Source: a virus
DNA: 43,962 nt
Strand: one strand, 5' to 3'
Virus record (IMG/VR): IMGVR_UViG_3300028840_002185
Location: 64,001-107,962 of that record
Part shown: positions 5,694 through 43,962 of the stretch, piece by piece
Position numbering within the stretch: the first letter of the stretch is position 1
Layout of the letters: each line of letters opens with the position of its first letter
Program-made: the position numbers and the translations under genes
The notes under the pieces: model-generated
What the model saw: only the letters and a program-made list of their open reading frames with translations
The model's database searches: none
Told to the model about the DNA's origin: nothing

Positions 5694-6206
5694 ATGATAA
5701 ATAAAAGAAAATTCGATGACAAATGGATCTTGGCAATGAAACCCTATTCCAACGTTAAAGGCGATAATCACCTTTGCATTGTATTCGCTTATTTGCCAAC
5801 AAACTCAATCACTCCATATGTAACATGGGTTTATAACAATCAGGATCAGGGATTCTTTTGGGGCCATTATCATAGACATATCAATGAAGCAATTCCTGAA
5901 TTCATGACCAGAGGAACCGGAACAGCAGTTTATGATGAAGCAATGATTAAATCCCATGATGCAATTGAATGTCACTATTGCAATTTTCTTGATCGGGAAG
6001 GTGGAGTTGAAGAATGTGATTCAGATCATGCTCAATTGATTTCTGTTTACCTTCATAAACCTGAAGGTGGAATTGAATGGATCACCGATCACTTTGATGG
6101 TAAAGATGCTGCCAGAATTATAAGATGGATCAGCAATCGATTTGAATTACCAGTAATTCATCAACCAGATGATCTTCATTACATTAAATTAAAACCAATT
6201 AATTGA
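5694..6206 (+). CDS. Hypothetical protein (170 aa)
   Basis: 170 residues behind TTGGAGA. Contains CHYCNFLDREGGVEEC and several His and Asp residues, which could bind a metal but match no motif I know. It ends HYIKLKPIN. The final YIKLK faintly resembles the basic-hydrophobic terminal peptides found downstream, but I do not count it among them. Confidence 0.7.
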   Translation: MINKRKFDDKWILAMKPYSNVKGDNHLCIVFAYLPTNSITPYVTWVYNNQDQGFFWGHYHRHINEAIPEFMTRGTGTAVYDEAMIKSHDAIECHYCNFLDREGGVEECDSDHAQLISVYLHKPEGGIEWITDHFDGKDAARIIRWISNRFELPVIHQPDDLHYIKLKPIN

Positions 6207-6218
6207 TAAGGAGAAGTC

Positions 6219-6395
6219 ATGTCGAATAAAAATAAACACGTTAATATCCGAATAACTGATACAGTCAATAAGCAAATCAATTCAATTCATAAGGAATTGG
6301 AAAAGGAAAGTGGATTGACATATTCCAGATCTCAAATCATATTTATGCTTATAATCAAAGGGATTGAAAAATATGTCGAAAATCGAATTTCTTAG
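6219..6395 (+). CDS. Putative small ribbon-helix-helix-like DNA-binding protein
   Basis: 58 residues behind AAGGAG. The layout is a basic N-terminus, one beta strand (HVNIRITD), a helix (TVNKQINSIHKELEKE), then TYSRSQIIFMLIIKGIEKY as a second helix. This is the order and length of a ribbon-helix-helix repressor. It is the last gene before the only consensus-like promoter I found, so it could regulate that promoter. The fold is inferred from the pattern only. Confidence 0.55.
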   Translation: MSNKNKHVNIRITDTVNKQINSIHKELEKESGLTYSRSQIIFMLIIKGIEKYVENRIS

Positions 6396-6419
6396 TTATA
6401 TCAACAGGTTTCAGAAGAC

Positions 6420-6448
6420 TTGACAAGCCTTTTATAATAGGTTATACT
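6420..6448 (+). promoter_or_regulatory. Sigma70-type promoter for the replication region
   Basis: TTGACA at 6420-6425, a spacer of exactly 17 bases, and TATACT at 6443-6448. The -35 box is perfect and the -10 box matches 5 of 6 consensus positions. Transcription would start near 6455, giving a leader of about 50 bases before the ATG at 6504. It lies in the longest gap of the left arm (6396-6503) and points into the replication genes. Recognition by host sigma70 is inferred from sequence. Confidence 0.75.
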
Positions 6449-6503
6449 GTTACTTGACCAAATGGCAAAAACCTATCTAAACCAAACGAAAGGAGATCAA
6501 TCA

Positions 6504-6986
6504 ATGAGCGAATGGCAGAAATACAATGATGAACTAAAACAATCAATCGAAGAACCTACCAAAAAAGATTTACTTCAGATGGATGAATTGCATTTAACCA
6601 TCTATGAATTGAATCAGGAGAAAATATCTCTTGAGCAATCACTCAAAGAAGTAAATGACAAACTGGAACAAAAGATCGAAAAAGTCAGACAATTACTTGA
6701 ATCCAAAAATCCCCCTAATTGGGCATGGAATTGGATCTTCAAAAAGACCTCAATTGCATGGAAACAAGAATTCATCAGTCGATTGGGTAAGGCTGAAGCC
6801 AATAAAATATCGGCTGAAGCAAAACAGAAAGAATATCCAAAGGTCGGCATTCGATTCGTTGATCCTAATCCTGAACTCATTCCCGAAACTCCAATCGATA
6901 AAGCCAAACGTAATGTCAAACGATTGGATCTCCCTGCACCCAAACTAACTCTTAAAGAACGTCTTGCTCAATTGAAGGGTAATTAA
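6504..6986 (+). CDS. Coiled-coil protein with recurring terminal peptides
   Basis: Start at ATG 6504, behind AAACGAAAGGAG; an in-frame ATG at 6462 lies too close to the promoter. The 160-residue product has a coiled coil at about residues 25-65 (heptads of L/I with E/K), a middle domain with PPNWAWNWIFKKT, and a C-terminus containing KRLDLPAPK and then LTLKERLAQLKGN. Both end motifs recur in other replication proteins of this phage. It is the first gene after the promoter. Function unknown; a scaffold or adaptor is my inference. Confidence 0.75.
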   Translation: MSEWQKYNDELKQSIEEPTKKDLLQMDELHLTIYELNQEKISLEQSLKEVNDKLEQKIEKVRQLLESKNPPNWAWNWIFKKTSIAWKQEFISRLGKAEANKISAEAKQKEYPKVGIRFVDPNPELIPETPIDKAKRNVKRLDLPAPKLTLKERLAQLKGN

Positions 6987-6990
6987 AATT

Positions 6991-8667
6991 GTGTTCATTA
7001 AATTGTCTTTATGGAAATGTTATCTCTATTCCCTTGCTCAAAGGTTTAGACGGTATCGAGCAATCAATACCAGTAAATATTATTGGGGATTTAATTGGGA
7101 TGACATTCATCTTTTACGATCAATGTGTTTTAAATATTTACCGAAAGGAGGGATTAAATTATTAAAGTGTGATCGATACGATCAATTGATCGATCAAGTG
7201 TTAGGAAGCAGAATGGTTATCGCAGATCCGAAAGAGATCGAATTAGCCAATCGGTTATTAATCATTAAACGTATTAATCCAAGGAGGTTACTCATGGAAT
7301 TAAAACAATTGAAAGAATTTGGAAAAGAAGTTGGATTGAAATTGGCTCAGATGAATAAAATGTCTGAAGAAGAATTAACTCTTGAGATCATTCGGAACGT
7401 TGAACCGAAAGTCCAGTATGCAAAAGAACTGGTCGCATGGTACAATGAATTGCCGGATGAATTGTTCGATCAAGCGGAAGCTCAATCTGGAGCAGAAACA
7501 ACAACAGAAGAATCAACTTCTGGTTCTATATCAGTTGCCGATGTAATTGAAGTAATCAATGGCTATACTAAAAAGGCTGAATTGATAGAGATCCTTGAAG
7601 ACAATGATGTTGCTGCTCTGTTTGAAGGTTTTGATCCTTCAGCCTATCGATTGCCTACGCAATTGAAAAAAGCAATGATCGAGCATTTGGAAAACCCTGT
7701 TACAGAAACCACATCTGATGATGGTTCTGCTGCCGTTACTGATGATCAATCGGCTGAAATCCTTGAACTGATCAATGAATGCGAGAACGAAGATCAATTG
7801 GTTGAAGTCTTCTCCGAATACCAAAATGTATTTGAAGATATGGACGTTCCCGATGATATTGATGAAGCAGCATTGCAGCAAATGATGATTAATCACGTCA
7901 ATTCAAAATCCCCCCAAGCAGAAGAAAAACCCCCTGCCAAAAAAATCATGACATTGCAAGAACGATTGGCTGCAAAGAAAGCAGCAGATGCCAAAGAGGA
8001 AACCAAAGCAACAAAAGGTAAAAAAGAATCACCTACATTTGATTGGTGGAATCCTGAAGCAGATGATTTCGATCCCGATGTTGCATTTGCCCAAGTAGAA
8101 CCAATGAAAATGCCTGAATTGCGTCAATTCGCCAAACATATCGGTCTATCAATTGGAGTTGGTGTAAAGAAAGACGATATTCTGGATCAGGTTGCTAACA
8201 AGATCGCTGAGTACGCTGAAGGTGTTTCTGAATCAACTGATGCAGGATCAATTGAACTTACTGCTGAATTGGTAAAAGATGCTGTCAAGGCCAAAGATCG
8301 TGAAGCATTAGTTGGAATGTGCGATCAATTGGGTATTGCCCTTAATGCCATTCAGAAACGATCTATTCCTGGCATGGAAAAGAAATTGATTGAAGCATTA
8401 GGTGATTCTAAACCTGCTGAGAAAGCTACATTGAAGTCCAGAACAGGTCGGGCCAAACTTGGTGCAAAAGCCGATGCCAAGGCAACCCCTTCTGCTGAAT
8501 CGGTATATGGATTAATGGAATCAATGGTATTGGAAGGCAAATCAACCGATGCAATTGTGAAAGCTGTCAGTCCTTTGTATAAAGAAAAAGGAAAATCTAT
8601 TATCTTTATCAAGAAGCGTGTTGAAAGCATGGTTCAGATTATCAAGATTGATAACGATATGGAATAG
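6991..8667 (+). CDS. Multi-domain SAP/HeH-like protein, possible two-start gene
   Basis: The open frame begins at a GTG (6991) and encodes up to 558 residues. An internal ATG at 7294 behind a near-perfect AAGGAGG could start a 457-residue form. The first 100 residues (YYWGFNWDDIHLLRSM onward) resemble an unnamed phage domain. After an acidic linker come two similar helical repeats (about 185-230 and 250-300), the motif MTLQERLAAKK, a SAP/HeH-like block (MPELRQFAKHIGLSIG), a further helical domain and a conserved C-terminal block (IIFIKKRVESMVQIIKID). SAP-like folds commonly bind DNA. It lies directly upstream of the polymerase and may be an assembly or DNA-binding hub. Function unproven. Confidence 0.7.
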   Translation: MFIKLSLWKCYLYSLAQRFRRYRAINTSKYYWGFNWDDIHLLRSMCFKYLPKGGIKLLKCDRYDQLIDQVLGSRMVIADPKEIELANRLLIIKRINPRRLLMELKQLKEFGKEVGLKLAQMNKMSEEELTLEIIRNVEPKVQYAKELVAWYNELPDELFDQAEAQSGAETTTEESTSGSISVADVIEVINGYTKKAELIEILEDNDVAALFEGFDPSAYRLPTQLKKAMIEHLENPVTETTSDDGSAAVTDDQSAEILELINECENEDQLVEVFSEYQNVFEDMDVPDDIDEAALQQMMINHVNSKSPQAEEKPPAKKIMTLQERLAAKKAADAKEETKATKGKKESPTFDWWNPEADDFDPDVAFAQVEPMKMPELRQFAKHIGLSIGVGVKKDDILDQVANKIAEYAEGVSESTDAGSIELTAELVKDAVKAKDREALVGMCDQLGIALNAIQKRSIPGMEKKLIEALGDSKPAEKATLKSRTGRAKLGAKADAKATPSAESVYGLMESMVLEGKSTDAIVKAVSPLYKEKGKSIIFIKKRVESMVQIIKIDNDME

Positions 8668-8751: not shown

Positions 8752-10305
8752 ATGACATTCTATTATCCCCTACCTGAAGGTAAACAATCCTCAATTGTCT
8801 ACGATTGCGTTAAATGTGGTCGATGTGACAATCCTAAGATAGACACGCCTTACTTCCCTTCCGTTAAAGGAAACAATTACAATGGATTGGTTATATTAGG
8901 TCAACAGCCTACCAAAGAAGATGATATTAAATCAATTCCATTTTCAAATAAGAAAGCTCAATTGATTAGAAGTACAGCATGGAAAGAAGGAGTTAATTTA
9001 AAGAATCATGGTGCATTCACTTACGCATTGCAATGTCATTCAGCAAAGAAAGCATCTGACATTGAATATAAATGCTGTCGATCCAGAATGCGAGATGAAT
9101 TGATTGATCTCAGACCAAAGATAATTCTATGCTGTGGAGAGATGGCATTCAAGTCCTTATTCGATCTAAAGAATAAGATTGCCCCTACCAAACTCAGAGG
9201 TCGGTTAATCCCGAACTTTGAATTCAATTGTCTTGTATATACTCTTGACAATCCCAATGACATTTGGACTTATGATCGGCAATACGCATTTAAGAAAGAC
9301 GTTAAACGTGCATTGCATTTCTTTGCCAAGTACAATACCTATAAAAAGGTTGATGAATTCCTGAAGGGTAGAAAGATCCTTGAAGGAATTACAATTGAAG
9401 AAATCAAATGTAAAAAGGGTTTAATTGAAGCATTCAAACGCATAGGCCAATTAAAAAAAGTTGCAGTTGATTATGAAACAACCAATGTCAAACCTTATGA
9501 TCACTTTTTTGAGATTACCCATATACAATTTGGAACCGGATCATATGCTTGGGTGATTAATGAATCATTATGGAATAATGATCCTGAATGCTTGGACATA
9601 ATCAAACGATTCATGCGAACAATCCTAACAAATCCAGATGTAGAAAAGATCATTCAAAATGCTAAGTTTGAAGAAAACTGTTCTCGATGGTATTTCGATA
9701 TTAAAAAGATCTACAATGCAAATGATCCAATGATTGCAACTCATGTAATTGATGAACGTAGAGGTTGCACGTCATTGGACTTTCAAAACTTAACAAGGTT
9801 TGGAATTCCACCTTATTCAGATACAGTCAAAAGTTATCTACAAAAGAAAAACAAAAATGATAAAGTCAATCGCATTCGACAAGCACCATATGATGATCTA
9901 ATTAAATATGCAGGATTAGATGTGATCACTACCTATCACAATTGGGAATTGATCAGAAAGATCATGCCAATTGCTTACCCTAATTGTGAATACAATTATA
10001 AATTACTATTGAAAGGTCATCAAGTCTTCTCCAACATGACAAAGAGAGGAATTAAGATTGGTGAACAGGAATTAGAAAATCTGGAACAGGAATTAATTGA
10101 TAAGATGCAAAATGTATTGCAACAAATTGCTGAATTACCTGAGTTCATTCAATACAACAATTACCTGAAAGATAAAACCAATCTCAAAAAATCAACCTCT
10201 AAGGAATTAAAAACCTTAACCATCAAAATGAAAGGAGATAAAACATATGTTCAATCAACTGATAAAAGATCGAATAAACCAATTAGAAGAAAGCTATCAT
10301 TTTAA
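8752..10305 (+). CDS. UDG-like domain fused to 3'-5' exonuclease: N-half of split family-A DNA polymerase
   Basis: 517 residues. Residues 1-200 match family-4-like uracil-DNA glycosylase architecture: C19 and C22 (CVKC), LVILGQQPTKED in the place of motif A, C94 and C107 as the second cysteine pair of a likely Fe-S cluster, and PKIILCCGEMAF. Residues ~230-400 are a DnaQ-type proofreading domain: exo I VDYETT (D240, E242), exo II NAKFEEN, exo III YAGLDVITT. The end is the start of a polymerase thumb, and the frame then stops after SNKPIRRKLSF. Palm and fingers are in the gene at 10864. The UDG-polymerase fusion is known from SPO1-like phages; the split with a capped tail is unusual. Whether the UDG domain is catalytically active is unclear, since motif A is divergent. 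Confidence 0.9.
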   Translation: MTFYYPLPEGKQSSIVYDCVKCGRCDNPKIDTPYFPSVKGNNYNGLVILGQQPTKEDDIKSIPFSNKKAQLIRSTAWKEGVNLKNHGAFTYALQCHSAKKASDIEYKCCRSRMRDELIDLRPKIILCCGEMAFKSLFDLKNKIAPTKLRGRLIPNFEFNCLVYTLDNPNDIWTYDRQYAFKKDVKRALHFFAKYNTYKKVDEFLKGRKILEGITIEEIKCKKGLIEAFKRIGQLKKVAVDYETTNVKPYDHFFEITHIQFGTGSYAWVINESLWNNDPECLDIIKRFMRTILTNPDVEKIIQNAKFEENCSRWYFDIKKIYNANDPMIATHVIDERRGCTSLDFQNLTRFGIPPYSDTVKSYLQKKNKNDKVNRIRQAPYDDLIKYAGLDVITTYHNWELIRKIMPIAYPNCEYNYKLLLKGHQVFSNMTKRGIKIGEQELENLEQELIDKMQNVLQQIAELPEFIQYNNYLKDKTNLKKSTSKELKTLTIKMKGDKTYVQSTDKRSNKPIRRKLSF

Positions 10306-10861
10306 TCTTGAAGAATATTCATTTGAATACAAAGGCAAAAAAGCATTTATTAATAAACTATCTGATAACAAAAAACTTGTTTGGCCTTTCATGAATATAC
10401 GCAAACGATTAGGACATATTACTGATGAATTGCAAGGTAATATAATTCAAGGCCCAGAACAAACAAAGGAATTTACTTACCTTTCAATGCAAATCATTGG
10501 CAATATGCTTGATTCAGATAAAATGGGATCTGTTGAAAACTATATGGATCATATTTGGAAAGACTTTGATACAGCAGTTAAATCAGATGATTCAAAACCA
10601 TTGCAGGATTTTCTTATGATACTTGCAGACATAGTTACAATGATTGATTGTTGCTGTGAGATTGAATTATCATCAATGGATGACTTTCAAAGAGAAACCT
10701 TAATAGGTGCAAGTATGATTGAAACCCTTGATCCAGATATTGAAATTACAGGGGCAATTCAAGTGACTGAAGATGGATCTATAATTAAAATGACAACCAG
10801 TAAGAAAGAAGCAATTAATGATCTTAAAAGAATGCGTCCATTGAATAAAAAGGAAATTTAA
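10247..10861 (+). CDS. Unknown protein inserted between the polymerase halves
   Basis: 204 residues, starting behind AAAGGAG inside the last 59 bases of the preceding gene. It is mostly helical and acidic, with a CCCE cluster (TMIDCCCEIELSS) in the middle and a basic end (KKEAINDLKRMRPLNKK). It shows no HNH, GIY-YIG or LAGLIDADG motif, so it is not an obvious homing endonuclease that could explain the split. The stop is 2 bases before the palm gene. A polymerase accessory role is possible from position only. Confidence 0.75.
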   Translation: MFNQLIKDRINQLEESYHFNLEEYSFEYKGKKAFINKLSDNKKLVWPFMNIRKRLGHITDELQGNIIQGPEQTKEFTYLSMQIIGNMLDSDKMGSVENYMDHIWKDFDTAVKSDDSKPLQDFLMILADIVTMIDCCCEIELSSMDDFQRETLIGASMIETLDPDIEITGAIQVTEDGSIIKMTTSKKEAINDLKRMRPLNKKEI

Positions 10862-10863
10862 TC

Positions 10864-12087
10864 ATGATGACCCCTATTACAGAAGATGATTTCAATTTCA
10901 ATTTGAGATCCAATGTTCAAATGCAAGAATTCTTATATGAATTCCTTGAATTGGAACCAATTGAAGCAGCAAATGAAAAAACAGGTAATTTTAAAACAGA
11001 TGAAGCAACAATTACTCATTATGCTGAAAAAGAAGGAATCAAATTTTGTACATTGCTATTGCAATATCGTAAATTGCAAAAGGCATTGAATACCTATGTT
11101 GCAGACCTCAAAAGAAACATCTCTGAAGCAGATCAATCAGTCCATCATGAATTATGGTTAAATGTAGCTGAAACCTATCGATCAAGTAGTTCAGATCCTA
11201 ATCTACAGAATCAACCTAAACATGGTGATATACTCCCAGGTATGCCTTGGAAGATTATTCGGAAAGTCTTTGTTCGATTGGATGAAAACTGGCTATTGGC
11301 TGAATTTGATTATGATGGTGCAGAGGTCAAAGTTGCAGGTATGCTTGGCAATGATCCGGTTATGATTGATGACCTTAATAACGATCTCGATATGCATTCC
11401 CATTGGGCAATTAAATTATTTGGATTGAAAGGTTATTCATATGAACAGGTCAAAGAACAATTTGGTGAAAATGAAAGGTTCTTAGCTAAAAATAACTTTA
11501 CCTTTGCTAACTTTTTTGGAGCAGGATTTCAATCAATTGCAGACGAGATGCGTAAATCAGAATTCTATAAGACATTTGTTTATAATATTTACAATCAACG
11601 CAAAACCAAAACTGAAACATTTGATTCTTATTACTATAACTTTTCATTGAACCATATTAAGGATTGCCAAAATCAATTCTATGATAGATACAATATTTAT
11701 AAGGCATGGCAGGATTCTCTTGTTGACAAGTATTATAAAAAAGGATATGTAGACAATCCCTTTGGTTTCCGCAGGAGATTCCCTTTAACTCGCAACGAAA
11801 TAATTAATTATCCAATTCAATCTACTTCATTCCTATTGCTGCTCGACAGTTTGATTAGTATTGATGATGAATTGGAGAAAGGAGGTTTTCAATCACATTT
11901 AATTAATCAGATTCATGACTCTGGAAAGGCCAATTGCTTAAAGTATGAAGCAGGTGATCTAATCGATTTAGTCGATGATAAAATGACCAATAAACCTCAC
12001 CTACCCTGGACTACCAAAGTCAAAATGAAAACTGATTGGGAGTTTGGCAAAAACTGGCTTGATATGAAACGTGTAAAAATCAATTAA
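10864..12087 (+). CDS. C-half of split family-A DNA polymerase (palm and fingers)
   Basis: 407 residues, entering the PolA fold at the thumb/palm junction (FNLRSNVQMQEFL corresponds to the FNxxSxKQL region of Pol I). SSSSDPNLQNQP, motif A EFDYDGAEVKV (catalytic D149), O-helix motif B RFLAKNNFTFANFFGAG (R205, K209) and motif C QIHDSGK (catalytic D352) follow in order. Motif C has Ser in place of the usual Glu after the Asp. The protein ends in the usual KTDWEFGKNW element plus an added LDMKRVKIN tail. It must work with the exonuclease gene to form a full polymerase (inferred). No strong Shine-Dalgarno is seen, so it is probably translated by coupling to 10247-10861. Confidence 0.92.
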   Translation: MMTPITEDDFNFNLRSNVQMQEFLYEFLELEPIEAANEKTGNFKTDEATITHYAEKEGIKFCTLLLQYRKLQKALNTYVADLKRNISEADQSVHHELWLNVAETYRSSSSDPNLQNQPKHGDILPGMPWKIIRKVFVRLDENWLLAEFDYDGAEVKVAGMLGNDPVMIDDLNNDLDMHSHWAIKLFGLKGYSYEQVKEQFGENERFLAKNNFTFANFFGAGFQSIADEMRKSEFYKTFVYNIYNQRKTKTETFDSYYYNFSLNHIKDCQNQFYDRYNIYKAWQDSLVDKYYKKGYVDNPFGFRRRFPLTRNEIINYPIQSTSFLLLLDSLISIDDELEKGGFQSHLINQIHDSGKANCLKYEAGDLIDLVDDKMTNKPHLPWTTKVKMKTDWEFGKNWLDMKRVKIN

Positions 12088-12109: not shown

Positions 12110-13615
12110 ATGAATTTAACATCTTATCAGAAAGCAGGTTATGGTATTGTCTTTGTTGAAACGTTAGAAATGAAACGTGCAATGAAGTCAATTGAGATTG
12201 ATAAACCCTTCCGCAAGAAACTCTGGAGTCCTATTCGTGGACTGATCAATGATTACTATAAGTTTAGTGACGATCAGGAAATGAATGCATTAGACATTCT
12301 ACGTCATAGTGTCGGTCAGCAACCCGATGGATCATTTGGCCCTGCTCCAAGCAATACTGCATATGTGCTTGAAAATTTCGATGAATTCATTGAACAATTC
12401 GATGTAGTCCAGACCATTCTTGACATTTACGATCTATTAAAAGCCAATCAAACAATGCTAATCATGGTCGGATCTAATTCTGCTGCAATCCCTTCCAAAA
12501 TCAAAGAATTCATTCCTGTTGAAGAATTCTCCCTTCCCAATGAAGATGACATTCGACAGATCGCAACATCTATTGCCGGAACTTCAATTGAAGCATTAGG
12601 TGACAAGTATGCATCTAAGTTTATTGTTGATGATTCAATTGTTGAAGCGTGTAAAGGCATGACATGGGAAGAAATTGAAAATGCCCTTGCCAAGTCTGCT
12701 GTTGAAACCAGATCATTTGATTTCAGGCATATTATGGATCGCAAAAAGCATATTATTAAACAGACAGGCTTTATGCAATTCATTGAACCTGAACCAATGG
12801 ATCAATTAGGTGGAATGAAACACTTCAAAGAGTACTGGCATCTCAGAACAGAACCTTTCCTTAATCCCGAATCAATCAAACCCAAAGTCAAAGCAATCCT
12901 CTGTGCCGGATTCCCTGGAACTGGAAAGACATTGGGAGCAAAGGTATTGGGATCTATTCTCAATTGGCCTATCCTTATGTTTGACATTGGTGCAATCAAA
13001 GAGGGCATTGTTGGTGAAACCGAAAAGAAAATGCGTAAAGCTACAATGACAATTGATTCAATAGGCAGAGCAGTTGTAGTAATGGATGAAATCGAAAAGT
13101 TCTTTGGCAATCAATCAGCAAATGGTGGAGTATCTGTATCTTCAAGTGGAGTTGATGAAGGTATGCTTGGTCATATGCTGACATGGATGCAGGAACGCAA
13201 GTCTGAAGGCATTCTTTACGGTACGGCAAACAATCTCGATGTATTGCCCCCTGAATTTAAAAGAGCAGGTGGACGTTGGGATACCATCTTCTTTGTCAAT
13301 CTTCCCAATGCCGATGAAATCAAAGAGATCATCAACATTCACAATAAGAAGTATCAATCAGAAGTTCCGATTCATAATCATTTCTGCAAGCAATTATATC
13401 AGGATGGATGGTCTGGAGCAGAGATTGAACAATTGGCAAAAGATTCTCACTACGAACCAATCGATCAGGTGATTGAAAATATTCCTGTGCTTTCTCGGTT
13501 CGACAAAGACAAATTTGAACGTACAAGAAAAATGGCTCAGATGTTTCGTTGGGCTAATGAAAAAGATGATAACCAAAAGGCAATGATCAAACCCCGAAAA
13601 CTTCAATTAAAATAA
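12110..13615 (+). CDS. Ycf46-like AAA+ ATPase
   Basis: 501 residues, behind AAACGAAAGGAG. The N-terminal ~230 residues resemble the N-domain of Ycf46-type proteins (YQKAGYGIVFVETLE). Then come Walker A GFPGTGKT (from residue 267), IKEGIVGETEKKMR, Walker B VVVMDEIEK (D326, E327), sensor 1 TAN and the arginine-finger region RAGGRWD, placing it near the FtsH/Cdc48 AAA clade. The C-terminus ends KPRKLQLK, one of the recurring tails. The next two genes are DUF1257 (Ycf35-like) and DUF2997, the partners this ATPase type keeps in cyanobacteria and some phages. Role unproven; a remodelling ATPase is likely. Confidence 0.9.
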   Translation: MNLTSYQKAGYGIVFVETLEMKRAMKSIEIDKPFRKKLWSPIRGLINDYYKFSDDQEMNALDILRHSVGQQPDGSFGPAPSNTAYVLENFDEFIEQFDVVQTILDIYDLLKANQTMLIMVGSNSAAIPSKIKEFIPVEEFSLPNEDDIRQIATSIAGTSIEALGDKYASKFIVDDSIVEACKGMTWEEIENALAKSAVETRSFDFRHIMDRKKHIIKQTGFMQFIEPEPMDQLGGMKHFKEYWHLRTEPFLNPESIKPKVKAILCAGFPGTGKTLGAKVLGSILNWPILMFDIGAIKEGIVGETEKKMRKATMTIDSIGRAVVVMDEIEKFFGNQSANGGVSVSSSGVDEGMLGHMLTWMQERKSEGILYGTANNLDVLPPEFKRAGGRWDTIFFVNLPNADEIKEIINIHNKKYQSEVPIHNHFCKQLYQDGWSGAEIEQLAKDSHYEPIDQVIENIPVLSRFDKDKFERTRKMAQMFRWANEKDDNQKAMIKPRKLQLK

Positions 13616-14296: not shown

Positions 14297-14312
14297 TTAA
14301 TTGGTGATTGAT

Positions 14313-14828
14313 ATGACCGATGTTTATACAGTAATGCTATTACATCCAAATGGCAATCGATTTCTAATGGAAGGTGTTTTAGCTGAAATTGAGAACAAAC
14401 ATGATATGCTCACATTTGATACTGATATGGGCTATTCACAGAAATTTCCTAAAGCATCATGGTTAGAAATAAAATTAACATTCCAAACACCACAAGATCA
14501 TTCTCAAGTTGATGAATTGAGAAATATGATTGAATCTGAATTGATGTTTCTTTATTTCAAAGACGTTCATCCCAATCTGATTAAAGGGATAGTGACTGAT
14601 GTTTATTTAAGTAGTGGTTATGAAACAGAGATACATTTCAAAGGTAATTCGACCAATAAAACCTTTCATGAATACATTGAAGAAGTCACAGGTCAATTGA
14701 ACGAAGCATATCAATATCATTTTAAATCAAATTCAGATGAACTTTTGCATAATGCTCAATTTGACCAAAAATCAGAACCGGAACCTGAATTAAAAATTAC
14801 GGTTCTCAAACGTAAACTTAGCTTTTAA
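14313..14828 (+). CDS. Unknown protein ending in KRKLSF
   Basis: Start chosen at ATG 14313; a TTG at 14301 is in frame but has no better ribosome site. 171 residues, with an N-terminal beta domain (YTVMLLHPNGNRFLMEG), a middle helical part and a disordered acidic linker (EPEPELK) leading to the final LKRKLSF. A folded body plus flexible linker plus conserved end is what a docking peptide looks like. Function unknown. It lies directly after the AAA/DUF1257/DUF2997 trio and may belong to it. Confidence 0.75.
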   Translation: MTDVYTVMLLHPNGNRFLMEGVLAEIENKHDMLTFDTDMGYSQKFPKASWLEIKLTFQTPQDHSQVDELRNMIESELMFLYFKDVHPNLIKGIVTDVYLSSGYETEIHFKGNSTNKTFHEYIEEVTGQLNEAYQYHFKSNSDELLHNAQFDQKSEPEPELKITVLKRKLSF

Positions 14829-14851: not shown

Positions 14852-15751
14852 ATGGCAAAAATATCTAAAAACAAAAGCAATGAAATTAACATTTTCGATC
14901 TTGGAACCTTACTTCAATTTGAAACCCATACTTGGCAAGCCAGGAATTCAATACCTAAATCAGTTAAAGAACGTATGACCAAAGAAACTGATTGGGTATC
15001 TGGCTACAGACGATTGATTAAAAAAGAACGTCTACAACCAATCAATTCTGTCATTACCTCAGTTCGGAACTACATTTGGGATGATATTTCTCTACCGTTT
15101 CCAATTAAATCCTGTCACTTCATCTCCAATGAGATCACAGAAGAAGCAGACATGAAACTGAGAGCATACAGCAAACAATTGAAAAAGGTTGTCAATGAGT
15201 TTGCAGGAGATTATGACAAATGGATTAAGGAATCGGAAAAAGCCTTAAAGAAAGATGGATTATTCGATAAGGAAGCATATCCGATGAATGTCAGAGAACG
15301 CTATTGGATTGAATGGAGATGGTTTGACATGACAATTCCTTCAGGTGTTACAGAGGAGATGTACAAAGTTGAATCCAATCGTATTCAGGCAATGATGGAT
15401 GAAACACGTCACAATTGCGTTCTCGCAATGAGAGAGGGTTTTAGTGAACTCGTTACTCATTTAACTGATACCTTATCCGGCAAGCTCGATGGTGAAAAAC
15501 GCAGAGTTAGACCTGAAGCATTGGAAAAGATCGACAAATTCTTTGAAACTTTTAAATACAAAAACATATTCAATGACAATCAATTGCAAGGTCTGGTTGT
15601 TCAAGCAAAAGATCTTCTGTCTGATGTGACTCCCAAGGAATTACGCAATGATAAGTCATTGACTAAGCTCATTCACAGCGGATTAAATGACATTACCAAA
15701 GAATTAGTTGAATCAACCGAAACCTATAAACGCAAACTATCTTTTGATTAG
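14852..15751 (+). CDS. DUF3150-like helical protein ending in KRKLSFD
   Basis: 299 residues behind GAAAGGAG. Mostly helical. It starts with a basic segment and a Trp-containing region (HTWQARNSIPKSVKERM), then repeated helices rich in E/K. The order of segments resembles DUF3150, a family that accompanies AAA+ ATPases in phages and plasmids. I hold this assignment loosely. The C-terminus ends TYKRKLSFD, nearly the same as the ends of 8752-10305 and 14313-14828. It probably works with the AAA cassette. Confidence 0.7.
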   Translation: MAKISKNKSNEINIFDLGTLLQFETHTWQARNSIPKSVKERMTKETDWVSGYRRLIKKERLQPINSVITSVRNYIWDDISLPFPIKSCHFISNEITEEADMKLRAYSKQLKKVVNEFAGDYDKWIKESEKALKKDGLFDKEAYPMNVRERYWIEWRWFDMTIPSGVTEEMYKVESNRIQAMMDETRHNCVLAMREGFSELVTHLTDTLSGKLDGEKRRVRPEALEKIDKFFETFKYKNIFNDNQLQGLVVQAKDLLSDVTPKELRNDKSLTKLIHSGLNDITKELVESTETYKRKLSFD

Positions 15752-17483: not shown

Positions 17484-18605
17484 ATGGCAAGAGTTAAATT
17501 AAAATTAAAAGAACCAAGTCTACGTGAGCGATTGAAATCTTCTGAGCTATTGCCTGAAGTAGATCTTAAAAGACCATTAAATTTCATTGATTCTGGTAGT
17601 TGGATGATGAATTTAGCATTAACCAATAATGTTGATCAAGCATATCCAATTGGAAGGGTAGTTAATCCAATTGGTGATTTTTCTACTGGCAAAACATTGC
17701 TTGCTTGTGAAGCAGTTAATTCCGTATGGTATCTGGAACACATATTGAAAAAGAAAAAAGTCAAGATTTATTATGATGAACCAGAACACGCATTTGATTA
17801 TCGATTAGCTGCAAAATTCAATGTTCCACTACAACACATATATGGACTACGTGAAGATTTAAAAGGTTATAAGCCTACAAAGGGTGTAAAGCCTTTTCAG
17901 AGATCACGCACAGTTGAAGATCTTTACAATAACCTTCAAAAAATCAATAAAGAAGACACTGATTACGATGTTGTCCTATATGTACTTGATTCATTGGATT
18001 CATTGACAGATGCAAGAGAAATCAAGCATCTTGAGAAAAAAGGTATTGCTAAACAAGATATGGGAGGAGGTAAAGCCAGAGTGCTATCTCAATTGTTTCG
18101 TAATTCAATTGAGAAGGTACATAATTCAAATATCCTTTTACTTATCTTATCTCAGATCCGAATGAACGTTGGAGTGGTATTTGGAGATCCTAATACAAGA
18201 GCAGGGGGCAAAGCACTTGATCATTATGCTTCTCAGTTCTTTATGCTCAAAGAGATTGGTAAAATCACTACTAATGCCGGAATCAATCAAGGTATTGAAG
18301 TCAGAGTCAAAATTAAGAAAAACAAAACTGGCAGCAGATACAATGATGTTAATTTTAATATCCTGCATGGTTGGGGAATTGATAACTATGGATCTGCTGT
18401 AAATTTCCTTTGGGATAACAATCAATTTGAACGATCTGGCAATTATCTTATTTGGGAAGGCAAAAATATGTATCGAGCAGAATTGATAGAATTAGCTGCA
18501 AATAATGAAGATGTAGCTCAAAAATTAAAATGCCAATTACAAGACTGTTGGAATGAACTTATTTTAGAAGCTGAGATTGATCGAAAGCCTAAATGGGGGG
18601 TGTAA
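17484..18605 (+). CDS. UvsX/RecA-like recombinase
   Basis: 373 residues behind TTAGGAG. Walker A GDFSTGKT begins at about residue 64, Walker B YVLDSLDSL has D169, and GGKALDHYAS is the RecA/UvsX DNA-binding-loop signature region. LILSQIRMNVG corresponds to the post-Walker strand and loop L1 area. The N-terminus, MARVKLKLKEPSLRERLKS, combines both recurring peptides of this phage. It promotes strand exchange, with the gp32-like SSB and UvsY-like mediator just upstream. Confidence 0.9.
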   Translation: MARVKLKLKEPSLRERLKSSELLPEVDLKRPLNFIDSGSWMMNLALTNNVDQAYPIGRVVNPIGDFSTGKTLLACEAVNSVWYLEHILKKKKVKIYYDEPEHAFDYRLAAKFNVPLQHIYGLREDLKGYKPTKGVKPFQRSRTVEDLYNNLQKINKEDTDYDVVLYVLDSLDSLTDAREIKHLEKKGIAKQDMGGGKARVLSQLFRNSIEKVHNSNILLLILSQIRMNVGVVFGDPNTRAGGKALDHYASQFFMLKEIGKITTNAGINQGIEVRVKIKKNKTGSRYNDVNFNILHGWGIDNYGSAVNFLWDNNQFERSGNYLIWEGKNMYRAELIELAANNEDVAQKLKCQLQDCWNELILEAEIDRKPKWGV

Positions 18606-39198: not shown

Positions 39199-40257
39199 TT
39201 AATTTACTTCCACTCCAAATTCACAGGCATTAATTTTAGCCTTAGTCCATATATTTGAATCGGAAGGATCATCTTCCCAAATAGTTTGATTTCTAAAATA
39301 TGAATCAGACAACGACTGAGCAGTAGTTTCTTCATAGTCTGCTCCTCCGGTTCTAAGAAATCCTTTCAATTTTCTATTATCCGTTCCAGCAGTACGTTGT
39401 GATACATTATTTAATTGCACTCCAAAGATTGCCAAGTCATCAAGATCCGTTGGAACATTTTCATATGCATAAGAATCTTTATTTCCATCTACTGCCCCTT
39501 CAACATAATCTGAATCATCAAATGCAGATTCGTCAATGCATTGATAATTACTTCCTGCGGAGGGAGTTAATTGAGAATAATTTCCTGCTCCATTGGGATT
39601 AACAGCATCGATCCTAACATCTCCTAAGAAATCATTATTCTTTGATCCAGTTGTATCTAAGATATAAATGTCATCGTAATTAACATCAACAAATTGTTTA
39701 CCCTGAAATAATACATTAGCAATTCTATTTGCAATTGCTAAAGATGGTCGAGTATCTTTATTACTAAATGAATGAAGACTTTGTTCATCTAATTTTAATT
39801 CACCCAATCCTTCAGTACTATGACACTTCCATTTTAATTCTACATAGTACCATCTCTTACGATCAAGAGTAAAATCAGAAATATATTCCACCACAGATTG
39901 AGTACTTGGCTGTCTAAAAAGAACAAGATTAAGATTACTATTAACTCTTAATAAACCTGAAATTTGATAACCACTTGGCTCATAAAATTCAACCAAGTCT
40001 ATTTCATTTCCTGTATAATCAAATTTAAAAGCAAAACCTATAATTAATACTTGACTATCAAATTGAAATTGGTTATCCCATCTAAATTCAAAATTAGATA
40101 AAGTATTTCTTGAAAAACCTCTGATACCATTTCCATTTCTTCCACCAGTTGCATCAATGGTAACACCTGATGCTGAAGCATAATAACTATAGCCCCAAAA
40201 TTTACTTAAATCAGCTATATTATATCCTTCAAAACCATCAAAAAATAAGAGTGCCAT
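39199..40257 (-). CDS. LamG-like phage appendage protein, type A copy 1
   Basis: 352 residues. Begins MALLFFDGFEGYN, a hallmark of a phage structural family with a concanavalin/LamG-like beta-sandwich (GFAFKF, WYYVELKWKC, DDIYILD). The C-terminal third (FLGDVRIDAVNPNGAGN, SQLTPSAGSNYQC, SDSNIWTKAKINACEFG) is nearly the same as in 40257-41303. Probably a tail or head appendage for surface binding. Its start shares bases with the preceding stop (TAATG). Confidence 0.75.
   Translation of the reverse strand: MALLFFDGFEGYNIADLSKFWGYSYYASASGVTIDATGGRNGNGIRGFSRNTLSNFEFRWDNQFQFDSQVLIIGFAFKFDYTGNEIDLVEFYEPSGYQISGLLRVNSNLNLVLFRQPSTQSVVEYISDFTLDRKRWYYVELKWKCHSTEGLGELKLDEQSLHSFSNKDTRPSLAIANRIANVLFQGKQFVDVNYDDIYILDTTGSKNNDFLGDVRIDAVNPNGAGNYSQLTPSAGSNYQCIDESAFDDSDYVEGAVDGNKDSYAYENVPTDLDDLAIFGVQLNNVSQRTAGTDNRKLKGFLRTGGADYEETTAQSLSDSYFRNQTIWEDDPSDSNIWTKAKINACEFGVEVN
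39473..39516 (-). repeat. 44-base perfect match in the type A pair, copy 1
   Basis: Identical to 40534-40577. It codes for the GNKDSY/EGAVDG region of the conserved C-terminal domain of both type A proteins. Confidence 0.85.
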
Positions 40258-41303
40258 TATGTATTTACCTCCATACCAAATTCACAAGCATTGATTTTTG
40301 CTTTAGTCCAATCATTTGAATCACTTGGATCTGCTTCCCATACTACGTCACTAATATGAAATTCTTCTGACAATGATTGGGCAGTAGTTTCTTCATAGTC
40401 AGTAGATCCAGTTCTCAAAAATCCTTTTATTTTTCTATTATCTGATCCGGCAGTACGTTTTGATATATTACTTAACTTAATACCAAAGATACCTGCATCG
40501 TCTAAATCGGTGGGAACATCAGCATAATTATAGGAATCTTTATTTCCATCTACTGCCCCTTCAACATAATCTGAATCGTCAAAAGAAGTTTCATCAACGC
40601 ACTCATAATTATTTCCTGCGGAGGGAGTTAATTGGGAATAATTTCCTGCACTACTTGGATAAATAGCGTCTACTCTCACATCTCCTAAGAAGTCATTATT
40701 TACTGATCCTGAATCATCAAGCAAATAAACATCATCAATTGCAATTGCTTCCCATGCACCAACTTGTATTCTAAATTTTGTTATATAATTAGATCCACCA
40801 TAAGGAAGGTTATCACCTGTCCAATCGCATACTTGTTGTTCATTTATTCTTCCTATTATTCTGCCGGAAGATGAATCAATATATGATTTCATTTCAATAT
40901 AATACCATGTATTTACTAAAAGTGGCTCAGTATGCGTATAAATTGCACTAAGGCTTGTTGAATACCTTCTTTTAAATTCTAATTGTAAAGAACCATTAAC
41001 TCCAACGGCAGTAGCTCCATCAGGCCATCCTGGTACAATTAATTGACATATTTCATCAACACTATGAGCAGATATTAATTTAAAAGCAAATCCAATAGTA
41101 ATATAAGCACCAGTTGTATCAAAATTAAGAGTACGTTCAAATAATGCTTCTGAATCTGCACTATAAACAGTATTAAGACAATTTCCTCCATTACGACCTA
41201 CATTACTTATATAGGCAAAATTATCAAAATAAGCATAATTCCAATACTTTGAAGCATTTGCTTTATCATAACCTTCAAAACCATCTATGAATCGCAATGT
41301 CAT
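40257..41303 (-). CDS. LamG-like phage appendage protein, type A copy 2
   Basis: 348 residues starting MTLRFIDGFEGYDKA. Same plan as the neighbour: variable LamG-like body, conserved C-terminal domain (FLGDVRVDAIYPSSAGN, DWTKAKINACEFGMEV). The pair shares a 44-base perfect DNA match (39473-39516 and 40534-40577). Start behind AAAGGAT. Confidence 0.75.
   Translation of the reverse strand: MTLRFIDGFEGYDKANASKYWNYAYFDNFAYISNVGRNGGNCLNTVYSADSEALFERTLNFDTTGAYITIGFAFKLISAHSVDEICQLIVPGWPDGATAVGVNGSLQLEFKRRYSTSLSAIYTHTEPLLVNTWYYIEMKSYIDSSSGRIIGRINEQQVCDWTGDNLPYGGSNYITKFRIQVGAWEAIAIDDVYLLDDSGSVNNDFLGDVRVDAIYPSSAGNYSQLTPSAGNNYECVDETSFDDSDYVEGAVDGNKDSYNYADVPTDLDDAGIFGIKLSNISKRTAGSDNRKIKGFLRTGSTDYEETTAQSLSEEFHISDVVWEADPSDSNDWTKAKINACEFGMEVNT
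40534..40577 (-). repeat. 44-base perfect match in the type A pair, copy 2
   Basis: Identical to 39473-39516, in the second type A appendage gene. Confidence 0.85.
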
Positions 41304-41320
41304 TTTTTTTATCCTTTTTT

Positions 41321-42202
41321 TTATCCTTCAATAATTGTCAAATAGACATTTTGCAAGAAAGCATCAGCAAAGTATCCAGACAACACAGTAAATTTACTCA
41401 CCAGTACTTCTAATTGAGCTTCATTATTTTTTGTTTCAGCTACCATATAAGTCCAAAACTCGTCAGCAGTTAAGCCCAACGTTTCGTCTGATCCTACCTG
41501 AACAAATGCATCTCCATCCCAATACCATCCTCTAAAAGTATTATTATTTTTAGTTACCTTTAATTTGGTATCGGTAATTGAAGTTGGAGTACGATATACT
41601 GTTTCTGATCCACCATCTGCTGTTCTGACAACAAAATTATTACCATTCACATTGTCATATTCTCTATTGATTTCAAAATAAGATCCTGAATTAAGATCTG
41701 TTCTGACACCAAATTTCCAATTATCCTGATCATAGTTTTCAGAAACATTTATATCAGCATAACTTGCAAAATCTCCACCTGTCAATTTCTTGAGCTTTAC
41801 CTTATCTGTAGGACTACCACTATTAACAAGAAATTCTAATTCATTAGATTGAATTTCTGGAGTACCTGCTTGTACAGACCAGACAGAAGAATCGGGAGGA
41901 TCACCATTATCTCCAATAAAGGTATTTTCTGAAATAGGATTTTTAGATAATACCTGAATAAACTGTTGTGCAACCTGAAGATTATTATTGGCAGGATCAT
42001 TATTAGAAATGACTTGAACAAATTGCTGTGCAACCTGAAGCCAGTTTACAGTTTCTAATACTTCTACAGCAACCTGAGATACCCTTGTATTGGGATTTGC
42101 ATCAGTTTCTAATACTTCTACAGCAACCTGAGATACCCTTGTATTGGGATTTGCATCAGTTTCTAATACCTCAACTGCTACTTGTGAATTTCTAACAGCC
42201 AT
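41321..42202 (-). CDS. Repeat-headed fibre-like structural protein
   Basis: 293 residues. The N-terminus has three copies of SQVAVEVLET, each separated by DANPNTRV where present, then two of LQVAQQF(V/I)QV(I/L)S. Such strand repeats are typical of phage fibre adaptors. A LamG-like domain follows (NTFIGDNGDPPDSSVWSV, WKFGVRTDLNSGS, FRGWYWDGDAF). It lies between the two pairs of LamG paralogues. An attachment or adaptor role is inferred. Confidence 0.7.
   Translation of the reverse strand: MAVRNSQVAVEVLETDANPNTRVSQVAVEVLETDANPNTRVSQVAVEVLETVNWLQVAQQFVQVISNNDPANNNLQVAQQFIQVLSKNPISENTFIGDNGDPPDSSVWSVQAGTPEIQSNELEFLVNSGSPTDKVKLKKLTGGDFASYADINVSENYDQDNWKFGVRTDLNSGSYFEINREYDNVNGNNFVVRTADGGSETVYRTPTSITDTKLKVTKNNNTFRGWYWDGDAFVQVGSDETLGLTADEFWTYMVAETKNNEAQLEVLVSKFTVLSGYFADAFLQNVYLTIIEG
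42051..42158 (-). repeat. Two perfect 54-bp tandem repeats with a degenerate third
   Basis: Bases 42051-42104 and 42105-42158 are identical. A partial, diverged third copy begins at 42159. Each unit encodes an 18-residue SQVAVEVLET-type repeat of the protein at 41321-42202. The perfect identity indicates recent duplication, and the number of repeats is likely to vary between relatives. Confidence 0.9.
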
Positions 42203-42224
42203 TTTCTTATCTCCTAACTAATTA

Positions 42225-43238
42225 TTAGGTAGTGATTTCTAAACCGAACTCTGCTGCTTCTAATTTGGTTTGAGTCCAGGGATTTGAATCGTCTGGATCT
42301 GTTTCCCAAATATGATGTTCATATAAATAATCAGAAGTTATTAGTGGTGACTCAGTTCCATCATAATCAACACTATTAGATCGGCATATGGGTGTTATCT
42401 TTCTTGTTCCGGCCTGATCCAATCTACAATCTAAAGCTAATTGAACTCCTTCAACAGTTCCCAATGCTCCAGTTGTGATACCAAATAAAGACTTATGATT
42501 CAAAGTATCTGAGTAAATGTAATCTGTGTCTTCATTTGACTTCGCTTCATCAACACATTCATAATCATTTGATCCAGTTGATCTGGTAAAGTCAGAGGAG
42601 TTACCATCTGAATCCGGTTGAAATTCTCTTACATGACAATCACCATGAAAACTTGAATCATCTATATAAAAATCATCCACATAAGTATCATATGAAGCAT
42701 GAATACCTCTAATCATTACTTGATCAACATAAGCAGATCCAATTTTAGTATCTTGAGAAGTTAAATTAATTATTGTGGTTCCATTTAAATGAACTTCTAC
42801 CGAACCAGTTGTGTCGTGTATAACTACTTTTGCTTCAATGTAAAACCATCTGTTACTCGAAAACACATTATTACTACTGGAACCAAGAAGTGAATCAGAA
42901 CCATTATAAACATCAAAACCAAAATTAGTATTTGCATGAATTTTTACTTGATCAACACCAGTTTCATCTAAAAATCTTATAAAAGGATAAGTTGAACTAT
43001 ATGTGGGTGATAATGCATTATAATATTTAAAAGCAAATCCCAAAACTAATTGGGTCTTACTTACAAGACTTAAATTCTTCCGCAAATAATAAACTGAACT
43101 ATCCAAACGCATCCCATTAGTACCAAATCTTCCATAAGCAGTACTTGGTGTTAAATTAGGAGCAGTAGTCCATCTATTTTTTACTGAAGCAGAATTATAT
43201 GCATAAAGACCAAAACCATCCATGAATAATAAAGCCAT
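42225..43238 (-). CDS. LamG-like phage appendage protein, type B copy 1
   Basis: 337 residues beginning MALLFMDGFGLYAYN, with a LamG-like body (LVLGFAFKYYN, RWFYIEAKVV, YVDDFYIDD) and a C-terminal domain (FQPDSDGNSSDFTRSTG, WTQTKLEAAEFGLEITT) almost identical to the following gene. Start behind TTAGGAGAT. Confidence 0.75.
   Translation of the reverse strand: MALLFMDGFGLYAYNSASVKNRWTTAPNLTPSTAYGRFGTNGMRLDSSVYYLRKNLSLVSKTQLVLGFAFKYYNALSPTYSSTYPFIRFLDETGVDQVKIHANTNFGFDVYNGSDSLLGSSSNNVFSSNRWFYIEAKVVIHDTTGSVEVHLNGTTIINLTSQDTKIGSAYVDQVMIRGIHASYDTYVDDFYIDDSSFHGDCHVREFQPDSDGNSSDFTRSTGSNDYECVDEAKSNEDTDYIYSDTLNHKSLFGITTGALGTVEGVQLALDCRLDQAGTRKITPICRSNSVDYDGTESPLITSDYLYEHHIWETDPDDSNPWTQTKLEAAEFGLEITT
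42493..42614 (-). repeat. Dispersed near-identical DNA in the type B paralogue pair, copy 1
   Basis: Two perfect matches to the neighbouring gene: 47 bases (42493-42539 against 43529-43575) and 38 bases (42577-42614 against 43613-43650). They fall in the conserved C-terminal domain, whereas the N-terminal parts differ. The identity is higher than the protein needs, suggesting recent duplication or gene conversion. Confidence 0.85.
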
Positions 43239-43260
43239 TTTATTATCTCCTAATTAATTA

Positions 43261-43962
43261 CTAAGTAGTGATTTCTAAACCAAATTCTGCTGCTTCAAGT
43301 TTAGTCTGTGTCCAGGGATTAGAATCGTCTGGATCTGTTTCCCAAATACTTGTCTCATATTTATAATTTGCAGCCAAAGCAGGTGATTCAATACCATCAT
43401 AATCAACGCTGTTGGATCTACATATTGGAGTTATTTTTCTTGTTCCGGCCTGATCTATTCTACAATCACAATTTACTTGAACTCCACTTACCGTTCCTAA
43501 TGCTCCAGTAGTTATTCCAAATATTGATTTATGATTCAAAGTATCTGAGTAAATGTAATCTGTGTCTTCATTTGATCCTTCTTCATCGACACATTCATAG
43601 TCATTAGATCCGGTTGATCTGGTAAAGTCAGAGGAGTTACCATCTGAATCAGGGCGAAAAGTTTTAACGTGAACATTACCTTGAAAATTTGTATCATCTA
43701 CATAAAAATCATCCCAAATGTTATAAGCTATTCCATTAATACCATATAATTTAAACCTATCAGCATAAGCAGATCCATATTTGGTATCCTTAGAAGTTAA
43801 ATTCAATATTGTTGCTTCATCAAGACGTATTTCTACCGAACCAGTTGTGTCATGTATAACTGTCTTTACCTCAAAATAATGCCAACGGGAATTTTGATAA
43901 ACACTACTTGCACTTGATCCAAGAAGTGTACCTGCTCCATTATATACAACAAAACCAAATGA
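43261..43962 (-). CDS. LamG-like phage appendage protein, type B copy 2, 5'-truncated by window edge
   Basis: The frame is open from the right edge (43962); its first visible residues SFGFVVYNGAGTLLGSS match the middle of the neighbouring paralogue, so the start lies outside. C-terminal domain KTFRPDSDGNSSDFTRS to EFGLEITT is nearly identical to the preceding gene. Same structural family. Confidence 0.75.
   Translation of the reverse strand, partial: SFGFVVYNGAGTLLGSSASSVYQNSRWHYFEVKTVIHDTTGSVEIRLDEATILNLTSKDTKYGSAYADRFKLYGINGIAYNIWDDFYVDDTNFQGNVHVKTFRPDSDGNSSDFTRSTGSNDYECVDEEGSNEDTDYIYSDTLNHKSIFGITTGALGTVSGVQVNCDCRIDQAGTRKITPICRSNSVDYDGIESPALAANYKYETSIWETDPDDSNPWTQTKLEAAEFGLEITT
43529..43650 (-). 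repeat. Dispersed near-identical DNA in the type B paralogue pair, copy 2
   Basis: Partner of the copy at 42493-42614, with the same 47- and 38-base perfect blocks. Could serve as substrate for recombination between tail-protein genes by the phage's own UvsX/Mre11-Rad50 set. Confidence 0.85.

What the first reader, a model, noticed from the sequence alone, without database searches (positions are those of the whole stretch)
8752..12087. Family-A DNA polymerase split at the thumb/palm junction with an unrelated gene between the halves
The first gene ends in the thumb; the second opens at the FNLRSN element and holds motifs A, B and C. A 204-codon ORF with its own ribosome site lies between and shows no homing-endonuclease motif. 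Both polymerase pieces end in the shared docking-type peptide (RRKLSF and KRVKIN), as if they were held together by a third protein. Split family-A polymerases are known in a few phages, but a capped split point is not something I know to be described.
Basis: partly seen in the sequence, partly recalled or inferred. Interest (0 to 1): 0.78.

Follow-up and report, generated by a model that had tools for sequence, protein, structure and literature searches.

The report
Thumb-split phage DNA polymerase, conserved intervening gene
In a lineage of uncultured phages the replicative DNA polymerase is made as two separate proteins, broken at the tip of its 'thumb', and in the window's own branch a third conserved gene of unknown function lies in the break; this is the spot where other polymerases attach the factor that keeps them on DNA, so it may be a natural self-assembling polymerase.

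Summary
Gene N (8752-10305: UDG-like domain, 3'-5' exonuclease, first thumb helix) and gene C (10864-12087: rest of thumb, palm, fingers) are one family-A polymerase cut at the thumb tip. Gene M (10247-10861, 204 aa, no family or fold match) lies between. It is no assembly error. Eleven sampled phages form one supported clade with the same cut, nested among relatives with intact, uninterrupted thumbs. Nine of them, including the window's phage, have M. The two other members have different genes in the gap, so the cut need not depend on M. N ends in a real conserved peptide (KPIRRKLSF), shared with other replication-cluster proteins; its codons change synonymously in N while changing M. C's end (KRVKIN) is not conserved, so 'both halves capped' is only half right. 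The cut aligns with Taq residue 481, where a thioredoxin-binding processivity domain has been engineered in. None of 11 clade records shows the clamp or clamp loader found in most relatives. Best reading: an obligate two-chain polymerase with a thumb assembled between chains and N docked by its tail, M being a probable accessory. A split polA with an unknown ORF was reported before (MEP401), at another site. Function is untested.

The parts
8752..10305 (+). Gene N: N-terminal polymerase piece (517 aa): UDG-like domain, DEDDy-type 3'-5' exonuclease, first long thumb helix, basic linker and conserved tail
   Evidence: Pfam UDG 7e-10 and DNA_pol_A_exo1 3.4e-18; phrog_17 positions 478-885; 57-66% identity to orthologs
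10276..10302 (+). Conserved tail of N, KPIRRKLSF (short docking-type peptide)
   Evidence: RK..F core kept across relatives after a hypervariable linker; 4 of 4 variable nucleotide columns synonymous in N, 3 of 4 non-synonymous in M; same hexamer at the C-termini of two other proteins
10231..10237 (+). Shine-Dalgarno AAAGGAG of M, lying inside gene N
   Evidence: conserved in relatives, where it encodes N's MKGD
10247..10305 (+). 59-nt overlap of N and M (M in the +1 frame)
   Evidence: 44-89 nt in the close relatives, no overlap in L041
10247..10861 (+). Gene M: 204 aa, helical with a beta hairpin, no known family; fast-evolving (32-43% identity within the close relatives, 19% to L041) but kept at this place
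   Evidence: No Pfam or PHROG family; AlphaFold model with core pLDDT about 90 and no Foldseek match at E<=0.001; profile finds it only at this locus of the clade
10850..10855 (+). Shine-Dalgarno AAGGAA of C, inside the end of M
10864..12087 (+). Gene C: C-terminal polymerase piece (407 aa): starts at the thumb-tip turn (DFNFNLRSN), rest of thumb, palm, fingers; motifs A, B, C
   Evidence: Pfam DNA_pol_A 4.5e-49; residue 11 aligns with Taq residue 481
12110..13615 (+). AAA ATPase immediately downstream of C, in the part of the cluster where relatives have a clamp loader; ends in a related peptide (KPRKLQLK)
   Evidence: Pfam AAA 8.8e-18; orthologs end KPRKLKL[KN]
14301..14828 (+). Fast-evolving protein ending in the same peptide (VLKRKLSF)
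   Evidence: KRKLTF kept at the end of its orthologs
14852..15751 (+). Conserved protein of unknown function ending in the same peptide (TYKRKLSFD)
   Evidence: no Pfam or PHROG match

Best explanation
This phage makes its replicative family-A polymerase as two chains that reassemble without a covalent bond. The cut lies in the turn at the tip of the thumb, so the two long antiparallel helices that form the thumb's stalk come from different chains, the first from N and the second from C; their pairing, with the exonuclease-palm contact, would rebuild the enzyme. N, M and C are translationally coupled in order. The free end of N was turned into a docking tail: a basic linker and a [K/R][K/R]-x-[L/I]-x-[F/L] peptide that several other proteins of this replication/recombination cluster also carry, so N, and with it the polymerase, would be tethered to a shared hub. 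The clade has no detectable clamp or clamp loader, and the break sits where T7-type polymerases carry their thioredoxin-binding processivity loop. So the tail and, in the M-bearing branch, protein M probably form a thumb-mounted accessory that supplies or replaces processivity. SHOWN: split, position, conservation, single origin in the sample, intact relatives, tail constraint, no clamp or loader match in the records searched. INFERRED: translational coupling, reassembly, docking, hub, M's role in processivity.
For: Complementary domains and adjoining profile positions. Catalytic residues kept in both halves: exo D240, E242, Y386, D390; pol D149, R205, K209, H351, D352. Thumb split in every thumb-clade member in which both halves are seen. 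Thumb-split rows form one clade (SH-aLRT 100) beside intact L101; intact relatives have an uninterrupted thumb. The cut maps to Taq 481, and the T3 thioredoxin-binding domain was placed in Taq by deleting 480-485 (PMC4215692). T7 and human mitochondrial polymerases bind processivity factors through thumb insertions (PMC7699545). Tail: strict [KR][KR]KL[ST]F occurs in 3 ORFs of the genome, all at the C-terminus; synonymous-only change in N within the overlap; related tails where M does not overlap (L041; L144 and L145). Clamp loader PF13177: 0 of 11 thumb-clade records against 20 of 23 relatives. Clamp (L045 protein or profile A7): 0 of 11 against 14 of 18 relatives tested.
Against: L144 and L145 have the split without M. 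L101, the nearest intact relative, also lacks a detectable clamp and has only a short clamp-loader-like ORF, so the clamp's absence does not track M. The absence is by sequence profile on partly incomplete contigs; a divergent clamp cannot be excluded (L044's record has a loader but no clamp match, and L068's clamp was found only with the profile). M's fold gives no hint of function. No complex could be modelled, and the N model was too poor to use (pLDDT 46).
Confidence: 0.55

Rival explanations
1. M is cargo. The thumb tip was broken once, probably by a mobile intron, intein or free-standing insertion, and the gap has since held whatever gene lands there; M is translated from the operon but has nothing to do with the polymerase.
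For: Gap contents differ in L144 (five small ORFs) and L145 (PAPS-reductase-like gene plus a 119-aa ORF); L067, a more distant relative, also has a PAPS-reductase-like gene between its exo and pol genes; the lineage carries inteins and group I introns in its pol and AAA genes.
Against: In 9 members M is kept at exactly this place, tightly abutting or overlapping its neighbours, across 52-85% polymerase identity, and nowhere else in the records searched.
Confidence: 0.3
2. The halves do not reassemble: N works as a separate UDG-exonuclease factor and C as an exonuclease-free polymerase.
For: Related phages encode UDG-exo and complete-thumb polymerase as two clean genes, so free exo chains are tolerated in this lineage.
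Against: Here N keeps the first thumb helix and C starts after it, so neither piece is a complete domain set; both pieces and the cut are conserved together.
Confidence: 0.08
3. The genes are joined after transcription or translation (intron containing M, or trans-splicing) into one normal polymerase.
For: Group I introns and inteins occur in pol and AAA genes of sister phages.
Against: No intron family match in the window or in 10000-11100; no splicing-domain match in N, M or C; N's own C-terminus is constrained as protein; gap genes and lengths differ between members.
Confidence: 0.03
4. Sequencing or assembly artefact.
For: None found.
Against: The same arrangement in several independent contigs with indels and divergence.
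Confidence: 0.01

Closest known systems
Methylophilales phage MEP401/MEP402 split family-A polymerase (PMC10580990; OP830906)
   Different: Cut lies after the thumb, just before motif A (gp13 ends ..LSRYGE, gp15 starts MILNADAKALEW); gp14 is 77 aa and a search of the phage collection with M found no match; gp13 includes the whole thumb
UDG-exo | polymerase two-gene split in the related phages (L044, L045, L050 and others)
   Same: Related UDG-exo-pol polymerase encoded in two genes
   Different: Cut before the thumb at a domain boundary, no M; on the tree a separate subclade from the thumb-split one
T7/T3 DNA polymerase with thioredoxin-binding domain
   Same: An addition at the same turn of the thumb; replisome without a sliding clamp (T7: general knowledge)
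   Different: One chain with an inserted loop that binds host thioredoxin; here the chain is open, and phage-encoded M and a tail are present
Human mitochondrial DNA polymerase (thumb insertion binding its accessory subunit)
   Same: Processivity factor attached through a thumb insertion (PMC7699545)
   Different: Continuous chain; no sequence relation found
Split polymerase B with intein in phage MIJ3 (PMC6892783)
   Same: A phage polymerase in two genes with a gene between
   Different: Family B, with a split intein and an HNH gene at the break; nothing of the kind here

Membership tests
Family-A DNA polymerase | DNA_pol_A domain with motifs A, B and C | tested here: met
   PF00476 4.5e-49; D149, R205, K209, H351, D352 invariant. 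Motif C reads HDS, not HDE
Family-A DNA polymerase | 3'-5' exonuclease motifs (D-x-E, Y...D) | tested here: met
   PF01612 3.4e-18; D240, E242, Y386, D390 invariant; the ExoII acidic residue is E (KFE) rather than D
Intron- or intein-split polymerase gene | Group I/II intron core or intein splicing domain at the break | tested here: not met
   No Rfam intron in the window or at 10000-11100; no intein Pfam match in N, M or C, although the same libraries do find them in L144 and L145
Homing-endonuclease insertion | HNH, GIY-YIG or LAGLIDADG domain in the intervening gene | tested here: not met
   M matches no Pfam or PHROG family and no PDB or BFVD fold at E<=0.001
T7-type thumb processivity module (works like) | Extra element at the thumb-tip turn between the two thumb helices | tested here: met
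   Junction at Taq 481; the T3 thioredoxin-binding domain took the place of Taq 480-485 (PMC4215692). In position only: the extra element here is a chain break and a separate gene
T7-type thumb processivity module (works like) | Element binds a partner and raises processivity | not testable with these tools
   Needs biochemistry
Clamp-dependent phage replicase | Phage-encoded sliding clamp and clamp loader | tested here: not met
   PF00712, PF02916, PF13177 and clamp profile A7 all negative in G000, while PF13177 and the clamp queries match most relatives; the record may be incomplete
Active uracil-DNA glycosylase | Catalytic GEAPG..ED and HPS-type motifs | tested here: not met
   Reads GQQPTKEDD and NPND in N; UDG fold only

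The most novel reading that the evidence does not exclude
A naturally three-part family-A replicase: exo/thumb half, palm half and a dedicated phage-encoded protein M that mounts on the opened thumb tip and takes the place of a lost sliding clamp, with the half-enzyme tethered to a shared replisome hub by a KRKLSF tail.
Probability: 0.28. Interest if true: 0.78.

Novelty: new variant of a known kind. Interest (0 to 1): 0.56.

Why it matters
It would be a natural experiment in opening a polymerase at the point where processivity factors attach, and a case in which a phage lineage apparently did without its clamp and loader. It gives concrete targets: a two-chain family-A polymerase, an unclassified accessory protein and a recurring replisome docking peptide. 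If the halves do reassemble, a naturally split polymerase is also a usable tool.

Tried and rejected
Artefact (rejected by relatives). Intron or intein at the split (Rfam, Pfam; rejected). Homing endonuclease (rejected). M as a severed polymerase part: the thumb is complete from N plus C when set against intact relatives, and M matches no polymerase region, so M is extra. A 'shared tail on both halves': rejected for C. A conserved docking peptide at the end of M: considered, but its last residues are forced by C's Shine-Dalgarno, so not claimed. M homolog in L144 (171-aa ORF): looked similar by eye, hhalign gave no support. MEP401 gp14 as an M relative: M finds nothing in the phages collection, and that split site differs. 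AlphaFold of N: too poor, not used. Scan of bacterial genomes found nothing. Literature searches for a thumb-split family-A polymerase found none.

Full report
WHAT IS THERE. The window is bases 64001-107962 of a 107,962-base virus record. Gene N (8752-10305, 517 aa) matches the UDG superfamily and the family-A 3'-5' exonuclease and runs into the thumb; gene C (10864-12087, 407 aa) matches DNA_pol_A from profile position 29 to its end. On phrog_17 N ends at position 885 and C begins at 897, so together they make one polymerase. Gene M (10247-10861, 204 aa) matches no Pfam or PHROG family. N and M overlap by 59 nt in different frames; the Shine-Dalgarno of M lies in N, and that of C in the end of M.

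NOT AN ARTEFACT. Relatives in IMG/VR with 69-85% identity in C show the same three-gene order wherever both sides are present. L041 (55% over the palm) keeps it, with an M only 19% identical. The M profile built with these sequences recognises L041 and the fragment in L042 (both were in the profile, so this is not independent). Better evidence for L041's M is its place, its matching pattern of segments and its shared end; I count both as M-bearing. No match to M was found in the annotated phage collection or elsewhere in the 12 records searched.

WHERE THE CUT IS. C residue 11 aligns with Taq residue 481. This is the turn between the two halves of the thumb; the T3 thioredoxin-binding domain was put into Taq by deleting residues 480-485, raising processivity 20-50 times (PMC4215692). 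T7 and human mitochondrial polymerases bind their processivity factors through thumb insertions (PMC7699545). Intact relatives run straight through this turn (e.g. L101, L072).

HISTORY. In a tree of the C region (71 rows, quick method) the thumb-split polymerases form one clade of 11 (SH-aLRT 100) beside the intact L101 (90). Nine of them carry M (92); the other two, L144 and L145, have the same cut (C starts MLFNIQSGPQMQEFLY or MIFNIASPVQMQQFLF) with other genes in the gap: five small ORFs, or a PAPS-reductase-like gene plus a 119-aa ORF. A different split, UDG-exo | complete-thumb polymerase, occurs in another subclade. So the thumb cut arose once in this sample and is at least as old as M's place in it; whether M came later or was lost in the two cannot be told. 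Inteins and group I introns sit in pol and AAA genes of L144 and L145, so an invading element is a plausible first cause of the cut, but none is visible in the window.

THE TAILS. N's last residues (KPIRRKLSF; KIKRKIQF in L006 and L008) follow a hypervariable linker. The strict pattern [KR][KR]KL[ST]F occurs in three ORFs of the genome, all at the C-terminus: N, 14301-14828 and 14852-15751; the last two keep KRKLTF in orthologs, and related peptides end the AAA protein and the UvsY-like protein. Because N's tail overlaps M's conserved LEESYHF, the frames had to be separated: among five close relatives all four variable columns in the last eight codons are synonymous in N and three are non-synonymous in M. 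That is few sites, but related tails also occur where M does not overlap (L041 PIKRHRLQV; L144 GKRKFLF; L145 KPKRISL). C's end is not conserved, so the statement that both pieces are capped is not upheld.

CONTEXT. Many relatives have a beta-clamp-like gene upstream of N and a clamp loader downstream of the polymerase. The loader family PF13177 was found in 20 of 23 related records and in none of 11 thumb-split records. A clamp was found in 14 of 18 relatives tested and in none of the 11. T4-type clamp PF02916 was absent too (that control family hardly rings in the control genomes, so this adds little). L101, intact and without M, also lacks both and has a 101-aa ORF that looks by eye like a loader's ends without the ATPase core (no Pfam match), so loss of the clamp may precede the split. 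Contigs may be incomplete; I treat the absence as suggestive.

HOW IT PROBABLY WORKS. The thumb stalk is two long helices; here the first belongs to N and the second to C, so the chains should pair there and through the exonuclease-palm contact (inference from family-A structures; not modelled). Catalytic residues are conserved in both halves, so an active enzyme is expected. N's tail probably docks on a common partner of this cluster. M, a helical protein of unmatched fold, is kept exactly at the break in nine members and may bind the opened tip; its absence in two members shows that it is not indispensable for a split enzyme, and cargo remains a live rival.

NOVELTY. Split family-A polymerases with an unknown ORF in the gap are known: in MEP401 and MEP402 the authors left the ORF unexplained (PMC10580990), but there the cut is before motif A, after the whole thumb. 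I found no description of a cut at the thumb tip (the library is partial). I file it as a new variant of a known kind.

Noticed in passing
L145:3364-5589 and L145:7587-7884: The C-pol gene carries an intein (Pfam Intein_splicing 5e-11), and the AAA gene of the same phage is interrupted by a group I intron (Rfam 89 bits).
   Followed up: partly
L144:4798-5162: Group I intron (Rfam 70 bits) in C-pol at nearly the same site (before PKHGD) as the intein in L145; the AAA gene of L144 has an intein with an HNH domain at its P-loop.
   Followed up: partly
L101:5997-6302: 101-aa ORF that looks like a clamp loader reduced to its two ends, in the nearest intact relative; no Pfam match, judged by eye.
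   Followed up: partly
L145:2029-3006 and L067:2757-3665: PAPS-reductase-like genes sit between the two polymerase genes; the one in L145 ends in the same kind of basic peptide (KPKRISLRSK) as its N-pol.
   Followed up: partly
window 17484-18605: The UvsX/RecA-like protein carries a related basic peptide (ARVKLKLKE; MKRINLKS in relatives) at its N-terminus instead of its C-terminus.
   Followed up: no
window 11914-11922 and 9658-9672: Polymerase motif C reads HDS instead of the usual HDE, and the ExoII acidic residue is E instead of D, throughout the close relatives.
   Followed up: partly
L094:3441-5921 and L108:4605-7220: Polymerase ORFs about 370-400 aa longer than their neighbours' in the tree; possible inteins.
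   Followed up: no
L128:3624-5894 and 6062-8368: Two adjacent family-A polymerase genes in one contig.
   Followed up: no
window 39199-43806 (- strand): Several neighbouring genes with shared domains and repeated segments, apparently paralogous structural proteins.
   Followed up: no
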